Assembly: GCF_006716745.1 (NCBI RefSeq)
Contig: NZ_VFPP01000001.1
Coordinates: 682,001-746,000, forward strand
DNA: 64,000 nt
DNA from: Saccharothrix saharensis
GTDB taxonomy: Bacteria > Actinomycetota > Actinomycetes > Mycobacteriales > Pseudonocardiaceae
Direction of reading: 5' to 3'
Position 1 is the stretch's first letter. Each line of letters begins with the position of its first letter. The notes beneath the pieces were generated by a model. The model had not been told where the DNA came from. It worked only from the letters and a program-made list of their open reading frames with translations, and made no database searches. Shown piece after piece: positions 34,759-42,971 of the stretch. The position numbers and the translations under genes are program-made.

Positions 34759-37700
34759 TCAGTCGCGTTCGATCAGGTGACCCACCACGTCCGGACCCGG
34801 GTGCGCGTGCCCGGAGCCGTCCCGGCGCTCGTCCGGCACGGGCAGCTCCACCGGCGACCCGTTGCGCGCCGCGCCCGCCGGCCTCGGCCCGACCCAGGCC
34901 AGCGCCAACGCCGCCTCCCCCTTGAGGAACCGGTGCGCCCGCACACCACCCGTGGCCCGCCCCTTCGCCGGGTACGCGGCGAACGGCGTCACCTTCACGC
35001 TCTGCCCGGTCGACGTGACCACCATCGGCTCACCGTGCTCGTCGTCGTCCGTGCGGACCGCGCCGAAGAACACCACCTTCGCGTCCGACCCCACGTTGAT
35101 GCCCGCCATGCCACCACCGCGCAGGCCCTGCGGGCGGACCAGCGACGCCGGGTACCGCAACAGCGACGCCTCCGACGTCACGAACACCAGCGTCTCGTCC
35201 GGGCCGCGCAACCACGTCGCGCCGACCACCTCGTCACCCTCCTTGAGGGTGATCACCTCGAACTCGTCCGACCGCACCGGCCACTCCGGCGCGCACACCT
35301 TCACCGTGCCCGACCGGGTGCCGAGCGCCAGCCCCGGCGACTCGGTGTCGGTCAGCGGCGCGATGCCCACCACGCGCTCACCGGCCTGCAGGTCCACCAG
35401 CTCACCGGCCGCCATGCCCCCGCTCAACGACACCGTGCCGCTCTGCTCGGGCAGCACCGGCAACGGCAGCACGTCGGTCTTGAACGCCCGACCCCGGTTC
35501 GTCACCAGCAGCACCTGGCCGCGCGCCGTCGTGTGCACGGTCGCCGCCACCGCGTCGTGCTTGGTCCGCCCGTTGCGCCGCCGCGCCTCCGACGACTCCT
35601 CCGACTCCGCGGCCGTCCGCGCCACCAACCCGGTCGCGGACAGGATCACCTGGCACGGGTCGTCGGCGACCTCCAGCGGCCCGGCCGGCTTCGACGCCGC
35701 CAGCACCTCCTTGAGGTCACCGTCGAGCAGCGTGGTCCGGCGCTCCTGCTGGAGGTCCTTGGCCACCTTCGCCAGCTCCGTCGAGACGACCTTCCGCAGC
35801 ACCGCCGGGTCGTCCAGGATCTTGCTCAGCTCGGCGATCTCGCCGCGCAGCTTCTCCTGCTCCGCCTCCAGCTCCAGCGAGTCGTAGCGGGTCAACCGGC
35901 GCAACGGCGTGTCCAGGATGTAGGTCGCCTGGATCTCGGACAGCTTGAACGACTTCATCAAGCCCTCCTTCGCGGCGGCCGCGTTCTCGCTGCCCCGGAT
36001 GAGCTTGATCACCTTGTCGATGCTCAGCAGCGCCTTGAGCAGGCCTTCGACCAGGTGCAGCCGGTCCTCGCGCTTGCGCCGCCGGAACCGGGTGCGCCGG
36101 GTGACGACCTCGTAGCGGTGCTTGAGGAACACCTCCAGCAGCGCCTTGAGGCCCAACGTGCGCGGCTGGCCGTCCACGAGCACCAGGTTGTTGATGCCGA
36201 ACGACTGCTCCATAGGCGTGAGCCGGTACAGGTCGGCCAGCAGCGCCTGCGGGTTCACCCCGACCTTGCACTCGATCACCACGCGGGTGCCGTTCTCCCG
36301 GTCGGTGAGGTCCTTGACGTCGGAGATGCCGGTCAGCCGCTTGGACTTGGTCACCTCGTCCGTGATCTTCTCGATGATCTTCTCCGGGCCGACGCCGTAA
36401 GGCAGCTCGGTGACCGTGATCGCCTGCCTGCCCCGGCTGCCCTCCAGCAACCCGGTCTCGACCTTGGCCCGCATCCGCACCACGCCGCGCCCGGTCTCGT
36501 ACGCCTTGCGCACCTCGTCCAGCCCGAGCAGCACGCCACCGGTCGGCAGGTCCGGGCCGGGGATGAACTCCATCAGCTTGTCCAGCGTCGCGTCCGGGTG
36601 CGTCACCAGGTGCCGCGCGGCCGCCACGACCTCGCCCAGGTTGTGCGGGATCATGTTCGTCGCCATCCCGACCGCGATCCCGGACGTGCCGTTGACCAGC
36701 AGGTTCGGGAACGCCGCGGGCAGCACCGACGGCTCCTGCAACGACCCGTCGTAGTTGGGCCGGAAGTCGACGGTCTCCTCGTCCAGCTCCCCCACCAACA
36801 ACATCGCCGCCGGCGACATGCGTGCCTCGGTGTTGTGGTTGACGAACCCACCGGCCAGGAACGAGTGGTCCTCGGACTCCACTCGAACGGAGTAGACCTC
36901 GGCCGGCGCGCACGCCACCACATCGGTCACCTCCTCGAAGCGGTATCCCGAGTCCATGATCGGCAGGATCGTCGCCAGGACCTCGGTGTCCTCGATCCGG
37001 TCGATGATCCTCAAGCGCTCGGTCTCCCACCGCTCGACGCGGTCGAAGTCGTGCTGGGTCAGCCACTCGCGGCCACCGCCCCGACGGTCGAAGTCGAGGG
37101 CGGCGCGCACGTACTCGGCGACGAACGGCACCCGGTCGGCGCTCAACCGGTGCGTCCGCAGCGGGAACCGCCGGAGCAAGGAGCCGAGCTTGGCCTGCTT
37201 GGTCCTGAGGAAGCCGACCCGTTCGGCGAAGGCACGGACATCGCGAAGCCCGGACACGACCAGGCGGTGCTCGACCGGGCCGCTGGGACGCCGGTACTGG
37301 CGCTGGACGGCGATCACGCCGAACTCCGCCAGCAATTCCTGCATCTGCGCGGCCAGTGTGGCGCTGTAGGTCGTGTACTGGATCGTGAAGCCGTTGTTCG
37401 CCTCACGACAACCGCCGTCACCTTCGAACGCCGCCATCAGGAAAGCGCGCTTGATCCCCCAACCACCGGTCCACACGAACTCGGGCACGAACTTGTCGCG
37501 TTCCTGGTGCCCGACGAACTCCGCCAGCGGACTGTTGCGGAACGCCTCCATCCCGCCCGCGTGCTCCTGCACGTCGAGTTCCCGGATCAGCTTGCGATCC
37601 CGACGGGTCTGACGCTCGGACACGCAACGCTCGCCCCCGACCACCTGGTCGTAGGCATGGAGCACCTCGTTGAAGAAGTGTTCGTCGGTGTTGTTGAACC

Positions 37701-42400: not shown

Positions 42401-42971
42401 AGTAGCGGGCGTCGTACCAGTAGCGGATGGACGTGCCGGTGCGCTTGGTGCGGCCGGTCACGCGCAGGCCGGACTGGCGGGTGAAGGCGGCCTTGGGGCC
42501 GGGTCCGTCGAACACGCCGGGCACGCCGTGCGCGAACGACATCTCGTGCGTCTTGCCCTCGCGGCGCACGACGACGTCGAAGCGGTGGGACAGGGCGTTG
42601 ACGGCGGACGCGCCGACGCCGTGCAGGCCGCCGGAGGTCTTGTAGCCGGAGCCGCCGAACTTGCCGCCCGCGTGCAGGCGGGTGAGCACCAGCTCGACGC
42701 CGGACAGGCCGGACTTGGCGTGCGTGCCGGTGGGGATGCCGCGGCCGTCGTCGTCGACCTGGACGCTGCCGTCGGCGTGCAGCGTCACGACGATCCTGGT
42801 CGCGTGGCCGCCCACGCCCTCGTCGGTGGAGTTGTCGACCACCTCGGTGAACAGGTGGTTGATGCCCCTGCTGTCGGTGGACCCGATGTACATGCCGGGG
42901 CGCTTGCGTACCGCCTCCAGACCCTCCAGGTGGGTCAGGTCGTCGGCCCCGTACAGGATCTCAGCGGTCAC
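39477..42971 (-). CDS. parE: DNA topoisomerase IV subunit B precursor with one intein
   Basis: 1164-residue precursor from GTG 42971 (GGGGAGAA about 7 nt upstream); the frame upstream to 43016 is not conserved. Splicing out residues 469-952 leaves 680 residues, as expected for ParE-type subunits. GHKL ATPase: [86 protein letters not shown], and [17 protein letters not shown] with the DxD metal site, then [28 protein letters not shown]. It provides ATP-driven strand passage with ParC. The intein divides the EGDSALG motif from SARMA, so the TOPRIM glutamate loop is interrupted until splicing occurs. A LexA box lies about 130 bp upstream. Confidence 0.93.
   Translation of the reverse strand: [1164 protein letters not shown]
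40116..41567 (-). other. ParE intein (484 residues, HNH type)
   Basis: Begins [18 protein letters not shown] (block A) and ends [16 protein letters not shown] before extein Ser (HN/SARMAR). Block B is [14 protein letters not shown] (TPDH intact). The insert is an HNH endonuclease rather than [24 protein letters not shown], then DDHAALH, matching H-H...N..NL...DH..H. It is followed by a long, charged, Arg/Glu/Trp-rich helical segment of about 200 residues ([14 protein letters not shown]..., [15 protein letters not shown]) that may bind DNA. The site, directly after VEGDSALG, is the known GyrB intein position. All splicing residues look intact. Confidence 0.92.

What the first reader, a model, noticed from the sequence alone, without database searches (positions are those of the whole stretch)
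34759..42971. Three inteins in the two adjacent subunits of topoisomerase IV
ParE carries one intein (40116-41567) and ParC two (38266-39186, 36832-38118). Each starts with Cys, ends with His-Asn before a Cys/Ser/Thr, and is a multiple of three, so the exteins rejoin into normal-size ParE (680) and ParC (826). All interrupt catalytic motifs (TOPRIM EGDSALG, the KYHPHGD segment, the active-site Tyr). Inteins are established in GyrA/GyrB at two of these sites; three in one topoisomerase IV pair is unusual to my knowledge. It makes chromosome decatenation depend on three splicing events.
Basis: partly seen in the sequence, partly recalled or inferred. Interest (0 to 1): 0.85.

Follow-up and report, generated by a model that had tools for sequence, protein, structure and literature searches.

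The report
Topoisomerase IV carrying three self-splicing inteins
A soil actinobacterium's topoisomerase IV genes really are interrupted by three inteins (protein segments that cut themselves out), two of known types and one belonging to an overlooked family that lacks a histidine long treated as near-essential for intein splicing.

Summary
In detail: three in-frame inserts lie at the stated coordinates and carry intein splice motifs. The only other type II topoisomerase pair found in the one-contig 8.92-Mb genome is an intein-free gyrase. Two inserts are known alleles in a paralogous gene: ParE carries the GyrB-site intein (a Saccharothrix espanaensis protein is already in print under 'gyrB') and ParC the GyrA tyrosine-site intein. 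'Three' is uncommon, not unique: 3 of 25 genus genomes, 3 of 58 named loci, 2 of 397 order genomes.

The unexpected part is ParC intein 1 at VVGD|CMGKYHPHGD, an actinobacterial allele of 130-456 aa in ParC and, in two distant genomes, GyrA. Its block-B histidine is replaced by glutamine in 73 of 73 ParC copies and both GyrA copies. Its splicing halves are under purifying selection while its endonuclease has decayed. It tracks its host gene; the other two mostly spread horizontally. Two sister species show a sharp 147-nt conversion footprint between the ParC sites. Splicing itself is inferred, and dependence of decatenation on it is unproven.

The parts
39477..42971 (-). parE (topoisomerase IV subunit B), GTG start, interrupted by one intein; exteins 680 aa
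   Evidence: DNA_gyraseB, Toprim, DNA_gyraseB_C
40116..41567 (-). ParE intein, 484 aa, between EGDSALG and SARMA; block B CTPDH; HNH-type endonuclease motif ([15 protein letters not shown])
   Evidence: HNH_3 E=0.01 only, below cut-off; HNH motif read by eye
34759..39447 (-). parC (topoisomerase IV subunit A), interrupted by two inteins; exteins 826 aa; no GyrA-box match
38266..39186 (-). ParC intein 1, 307 aa, between VVGD and CMGKYHPHGD; block B TPGQRF (no His); decayed LAGLIDADG region (about aa 71-271)
38119..38265 (-). 49-aa ParC extein segment between the two insertion sites (KYHPHGD to active-site Tyr)
36832..38118 (-). ParC intein 2, 429 aa, after the active-site Tyr (SRY|C...HN|TEARM); GyrA-type; first LAGLIDADG acid replaced by Ala in this genome
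43099..43114 (+). perfect LexA/SOS-box-like palindrome TCGAACACAGGTTCGA about 143 bases upstream of parE
   Evidence: consensus from PMC9380542 passage

Best explanation
The parE-parC operon holds three class-1 inteins. Each is translated inside its subunit and, most likely, excises itself (N-S acyl shift on Cys1, transfer to the +1 Ser/Cys/Thr, Asn cyclisation), leaving normal ParE and ParC. The ParE intein (HNH motif) and ParC intein 2 (LAGLIDADG) are mobile homing elements known at the matching GyrB and GyrA sites and mostly acquired horizontally by topoisomerase IV. ParC intein 1 is an old resident of the genus whose endonuclease has decayed while its splicing halves are kept. It belongs to a ParC/GyrA intein family in which the block-B histidine is replaced by an invariant glutamine, so its first step must be activated by another residue (Gln64, or the neighbouring Arg65 that is invariant in the ParC copies, are candidates). 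Shown: anatomy, distribution, invariance, selection, vertical versus horizontal history. Inferred: splicing, and which residue compensates.
For: In-frame inserts with splice motifs; profile and PDB hits; empty sites in relatives; C1, T61-F66 (TPGQRF), F-block D288 and H296, H306, N307 identical in 73 of 73 ParC intein-1 sequences; T and Q still invariant when two GyrA relatives are added (13 of 13 rows; L209 is 24-36% identical to the other rows), and the Gln lines up with the His of the two other inteins here, of gp41-1 and of two phage inteins. Omega of intein 1: splicing halves 0.20 and 0.17, endonuclease remnant 0.48, exteins 0.07-0.15. First-motif LAGLIDADG acid E seen in 37 of 38 copies over 400 aa (E and D in 33; the regex missed one motif in 5) but in 3 of 35 shorter copies (E and D in 1; the regex matched no second motif in 16 of the 35, in one of these neither motif). 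Intein/extein dS ratio: intein 1 median 1.37 (>2 in 4 of 231 pairs; G024 left out), intein 2 2.51 (26 of 28), ParE intein 2.19 (15 of 21; the mini form of G019 left out).
Against: No splicing data. Block-B His is described as the most conserved intein residue and essential in many inteins (PMC6333167 passages), so intein 1 could be slow or conditional. No structure could be predicted. dS ratios above 1 may partly reflect stronger codon constraint in exteins. The ParE intein is vertical in G000/G021 (ratio 0.97) and G007/G024 (1.09).
Confidence: 0.87

Rival explanations
1. ParC intein 1 is splicing-dead or barely active, because it lacks the block-B histidine; the ParC of this genus is largely non-functional and tolerated because topoisomerase IV is dispensable.
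For: Block-B His is absent; a printed His-less DnaB intein is a degraded pseudogene (PMC7765530 passage); topoisomerase IV is dispensable in S. coelicolor (PMC3905888 abstract).
Against: Splice residues identical in 73 of 73; splicing halves omega about 0.2, ParC exteins 0.09: both are under selection; a 130-aa version stripped of its endonuclease persists; Gln is conserved rather than drifting, even in two distant genomes where the host is GyrA (L209 passes the NCBIfam gyrA cut-off, L207 is a partial GyrA).
Confidence: 0.08
2. The three inteins are a selected ensemble: splicing gates topoisomerase IV activity, for example after DNA damage, and the combination is kept for that purpose.
For: A perfect SOS box lies upstream of parE, present with at most 1 mismatch in 16 of 30 loci; parE is LexA-controlled in S. 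venezuelae (PMC9380542 table passage); an intein in mycobacterial DnaB responds to oxidative stress (PMC6195587, search listing).
Against: Intein 2 and the ParE intein come and go (7 and 8 changes on a 27-row tree); co-occurrence of the two is near chance (4 of 25 seen, 8x8/25 = 2.6 expected; counts, no test run); 8 of the 16 SOS-box carriers have intein 1 alone, and G009, which has all three inteins, shows no such box within the 450 bases searched.
Confidence: 0.05

Closest known systems
GyrB intein allele (Synechocystis and other cyanobacteria; listed for Saccharothrix espanaensis YP_007037469.1 in PMC4071816)
   Same: Same kind of site, EGDSA|C...HN|SA; the paper's table lists an S. espanaensis protein under the gyrB allele, and G009, which carries the ParE intein, has the 9,360,653-bp size that I recall for S. 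espanaensis
   Different: Here it is in ParE, not gyrase GyrB; that YP_007037469.1 is this ParE protein is my inference; the GyrB site itself and the HNH link to Ssp GyrB are recalled
Mxe/Mle GyrA intein (PDB 1am2; NF038098)
   Same: Same site after the active-site Tyr, splicing domain homologous (5.8e-26; 9.1e-111)
   Different: In ParC; ParC copies form their own type, the window's copy being 40-44% identical to seven GyrA inteins of relatives
Tko CDC21-1 intein
   Same: Class-1 intein lacking the block-B His
   Different: Has Thr there and a compensating Lys58 (PMC5874633 passage); ParC intein 1 has invariant Gln, a different host protein and a whole bacterial family
gp41-1 intein (PDB 6qaz)
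   Same: Best PDB match of the intein-1 profile, over the N-terminal splicing half (2e-5)
   Different: gp41-1 has SEEH at block B, intein 1 TPGQ; different host

Membership tests
Class-1 intein (all three) | N-terminal Cys/Ser, C-terminal His-Asn, +1 Cys/Ser/Thr | tested here: met
   C1 and HN of intein 1 in 73 of 73
Class-1 intein (all three) | Block-B TxxH histidine | tested here: not met
   Met for the ParE intein (TPDH) and, as to the His, intein 2 (SENH; Ser for Thr); not met for intein 1 (TPGQ). Not strictly defining: several active exceptions are printed (PMC7664689 passage)
Class-1 intein (all three) | Intein-free homologues with colinear exteins | tested here: met
Class-1 intein (all three) | Splicing yields ligated exteins | not testable with these tools
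   No expression or proteomic data
GyrA Tyr-site intein (for ParC intein 2) | Same insertion codon and homologous intein | tested here: met
GyrB-site intein (for ParE intein) | Same insertion codon and homologous intein | tested here: inconclusive
   EGDSALG|C...HN|SARMA; the paper's table lists an S. espanaensis protein under gyrB. The GyrB site is recalled and no alignment to a cyanobacterial GyrB intein was run
GyrB-site intein (for ParE intein) | HNH endonuclease | tested here: inconclusive
   HNH_3 E 0.01, below cut-off; HNH motif intact by eye
Topoisomerase IV (host) | GyrA box absent, separate gyrase present | tested here: met
   No GyrA-box match in the ParC C-extein; QKRGGKG in the GyrA at 4.84 Mb; decatenation itself not tested

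The most novel reading that the evidence does not exclude
ParC intein 1 defines a mechanistic sub-class of class-1 inteins (TxxQ inteins) at a ParC/GyrA site for which my searches found nothing in print: Gln, with or without the adjacent Arg, does the work of the block-B histidine. Because the operon carries a LexA box, the three splicing steps could further act as a post-translational delay on DNA-damage-induced topoisomerase IV. The first part is likely; the probability here is for both parts together.
Probability: 0.12. Interest if true: 0.82.

Novelty: new variant of a known kind. Interest (0 to 1): 0.58.

Why it matters
[quoted passage not shown] A family of at least 75 natural sequences (73 in ParC; two in GyrA) with an invariant glutamine, including a natural 130-aa minimal version, makes it directly testable. 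The same operon also shows the homing cycle in one place: invasion, endonuclease decay, loss and probable re-invasion, with a sharp conversion footprint between two sister species.

Tried and rejected
Chance or artefact: rejected (comparative data). Second intein-free parC/parE in the genome: not found. Viral vehicle for intein 1: none in viral contigs (junction pattern also none); in phages 26 records and in plasmids 1 record match, none covering 80% of the query, the listed ones 21-22% at about 40% identity. With the distant GyrA copy as query, 38 phage records match, 19 of them over at least 80% of the query, the 20 listed rows at 21-25% identity, mostly in terminase or helicase genes where annotated: inteins of a general kind; two looked at have block-B His. 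Conversion footprints: 14 sister pairs tried, only G007/G024 convincing; G021/G018, which differ in the ParE intein, show a weaker excess around that site (p 0.003, uncorrected), and weak excesses also occur in pairs without an occupancy difference. Donor of the G007/G024 patch: none found among sampled loci; Lentzea does not match G024 better there, so no donor is named. Re-invasion of G024: with all kept columns, one clade for the 23 genus copies is rejected (p-AU 0.001) and G024 groups with Lentzea (96/90); but the splicing domain alone does not reject it (0.158), and G024 together with the wider short-intein set is not rejected (0.236), so re-invasion is likely, not proven. Association of the three inteins: near chance, no test run. 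Circularity of the chromosome from contig ends: undecided. 'Not in print' for the site and the TxxQ family rests on the searches in an open-access library only. Of the papers fetched I saw an outline with abstract or passages only; none was read whole.
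Full report
Observation. The window's minus strand holds parE (42971-39477) and parC (39447-34759). The ParE insert and the Tyr-site ParC insert hit intein models strongly. The KYHPHGD-site ParC insert hits only Hint_2 (3.5e-6, just below cut-off), weakly PF14890 (0.025), the C-terminal end of the intein in GyrA_w_intein (0.003) and that of an RtcB-related intein model (0.049), and escapes TIGR01445 (in the own-genome scan, TIGR01445 finds the other two but not this one).

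Host. The genome is one 8.92-Mb contig. Besides this pair it has one GyrA/GyrB pair, at 4.84 Mb; its GyrA is empty at both sites and its GyrB frame is of normal length, 681 aa. That GyrA has a GyrA box (QKRGGKG), the ParC C-extein has none, which fits gyrase versus topoisomerase IV.

Distribution in the genus (25 genomes including the window's, G000-G024). ParC intein 1: 23 of 25 (absent in G007, G022). ParC intein 2: 8 of 25. ParE intein: 8 of 25, one of them a 221-aa mini form (G019). All three: G000, G003, G009. On an extein tree the fewest changes are 3, 7 and 8. That tree has 27 rows: the 25 plus G030 and G032; G039 and G044 were dropped for want of an extracted ParE, and G027, G031, G033, G049 and G057 were not extracted by the script.

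Distribution beyond. In 397 genomes of the order (three calls, apparently the same draw), strong matches: intein 1 in 21 (E at most 1e-20, my count from the listing; its own tally at 1e-3 was 121, most of them weak partial matches), ParE intein in 21 (E at most 1e-20), ParC-type intein 2 in 13 (over 600 bits; my cut, made because the GyrA inteins score about 270-420; host gene not checked for each; short forms not counted). Genomes in both the intein-1 and the ParE lists, and with intein 2: G000 and G009. A scan of the GTDB collection (84,980 genomes by the tool's description) for two short peptides found 58 confirmed loci, 58 of 58 with intein 1 at the same codon beside an EGDSALG-type ParE, in Pseudonocardiaceae and Micromonosporaceae (family names partly recalled). 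Of these 58, 9 have intein 2, 7 the ParE intein and 3 all three: Umezawaea tangerina (306+321+185 aa), U. endophytica (301+429+183) and Actinokineospora xionganensis (130+429+485). The set was selected for intein 1 and may leave out records near the window's own.

The odd intein. 73 distinct intein-1 proteins align. C1, TPGQRF (61-66), D288, H296, H306 and N307 are identical in 73 of 73. The 23 genus sequences were found with the whole ParC protein, not with this motif; the named ones were found with patterns containing VTPGQRF or CFVRGALVS, so they are weaker evidence for those motifs. Independent support: a profile search of 396 genomes of the phylum gave 3 with E at most 1e-15, the window's own and two distant ones, both in GyrA at the same KYHPHG site, with block B VTTGQLY (L207) and VTPSQKF (L209). 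L209's host passes the NCBIfam gyrA cut-offs; the L207 piece is cut short and best matches GyrA models below cut-off. A search of 40 genomes of the class of G457 found no further copy. The T and Q are invariant in 13 of 13 rows (one row was a shortened copy), L209 being 24-36% identical to the rest. Arg65 is not shared by the GyrA copies (Leu, Lys). The Gln aligns with the block-B His of the ParE intein, intein 2, gp41-1 and two phage inteins. Printed His-less inteins that I saw are Tko CDC21-1, with Thr and a compensating Lys58 (PMC5874633 passage), and a degraded Arthrobacter DnaB intein (PMC7765530 passage); a paper says several inteins lack this or the penultimate His (PMC7664689 passage). 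My searches (open-access only) showed no paper on a ParC or ParE intein by that name, nor on this site.

Selection and history. Median pairwise omega among 11 close genomes (55 pairs): intein 1 splicing halves 0.20 and 0.17, endonuclease remnant 0.48, exteins 0.07-0.15. Intein 2: 0.09 splicing, 0.13 endonuclease (8 genomes). ParE intein: 0.10 and 0.21 (7 genomes). The long intein 1 of six Lentzea: 0.11 and 0.14. So intein 1 in this genus is kept for splicing and has lost homing: the first-motif acid is seen in 37 of 38 copies over 400 aa and in 3 of 35 shorter ones (regex limits are given under the best explanation). Synonymous divergence of intein 1 follows the host gene (median ratio 1.37, 22 genomes), while intein 2 (2.51) and the ParE intein (2.19) are too divergent for simple descent, with exceptions G000/G021 (0.97) and G007/G024 (1.09) for the ParE intein. 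In the window's genome the first LAGLIDADG motif of intein 2 reads LGGAWVSAGF where five of eight ParC copies keep the Glu (WVSEGF or WVSEGY; the others Ala, Gly, Gln), so its endonuclease is probably inactive.

Homing footprint. G007 (intein 1 absent, intein 2 present) and G024 (434-aa intein 1 with both LAGLIDADG acids, no intein 2) are sisters (100/100). Their parC differs at 31 of 147 bases between the two insertion sites, against about 1% elsewhere (Fisher p 3e-27); upstream of the intein-1 site there are 2 differences in 240 bases, one of them at -1, and after the Tyr site 24 in 2070, 5 of them in the first 100. This is what co-conversion during homing leaves. Neither donor nor direction could be fixed. 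The G024 intein groups with Lentzea rather than with the genus in the full tree, but tests on the splicing domain alone do not reject the genus clade.

Function. A perfect palindrome TCGAACACAGGTTCGA lies 143 bases upstream of parE, matching the LexA box tCGAAC-N4-GNNCGa of S. venezuelae, where parE is in the LexA regulon with a box at -157 (PMC9380542 passages). It is present with at most one mismatch in 16 of 30 loci examined. Thus the pair is probably damage-inducible. Whether decatenation depends on splicing is open: S. coelicolor tolerates loss of parE when its chromosome is linear, but then cannot maintain circular plasmids (PMC3905888 abstract), and the topology here is unknown.

Verdict. 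Three genuine inteins. Two are known alleles in a paralogous host; the third is a new variant of class-1 intein. The count of three is a chance accumulation as far as the data show.

Noticed in passing
window 43099-43114: Perfect LexA/SOS-box-like palindrome upstream of parE; none in 100 shuffles of the window; at most 1 mismatch in 16 of 30 related loci.
   Followed up: partly
L187:6001-6390: 130-aa natural mini-intein (ParC intein 1 of Actinokineospora xionganensis), close to a bare splicing domain.
   Followed up: partly
L073 and L090 (G007, G024), parC between the two intein sites: 147-nt patch 21% divergent between otherwise about 99% identical sister genes: conversion footprint of homing, donor unknown.
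   Followed up: yes
L207:1501-4230: A gyrA with two inteins, one at the KYHPHG site (TxxQ type, 440 aa) and one at the Tyr site (420 aa).
   Followed up: partly
G000:C1:2414984-2415196 (L214): A further intein of this genome, in what looks like an Rv2578c-family radical SAM protein (read by eye; the family name is that of an NCBIfam model seen, no scan of this protein was run).
   Followed up: no
G000:C1:4144547-4144774 (L216): Intein-like Hint domain near the end of an RHS-repeat-like protein (read by eye).
   Followed up: no
L100-L106, L108 (gyrA of G018, G021, G003, G006, G015, G049, G027, G019): Gyrase GyrA inteins at the Tyr site in relatives, 40-44% identical to the window's ParC intein 2 in the seven aligned (G049 not aligned); G019 carries a shortened form. 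Lengths of 443 aa include 22 extein residues.
   Followed up: partly
L188, L189 (ends of the window's contig): No terminal inverted repeat seeds in the first 3 kb and no clear gene across the join; chromosome topology undecided.
   Followed up: partly
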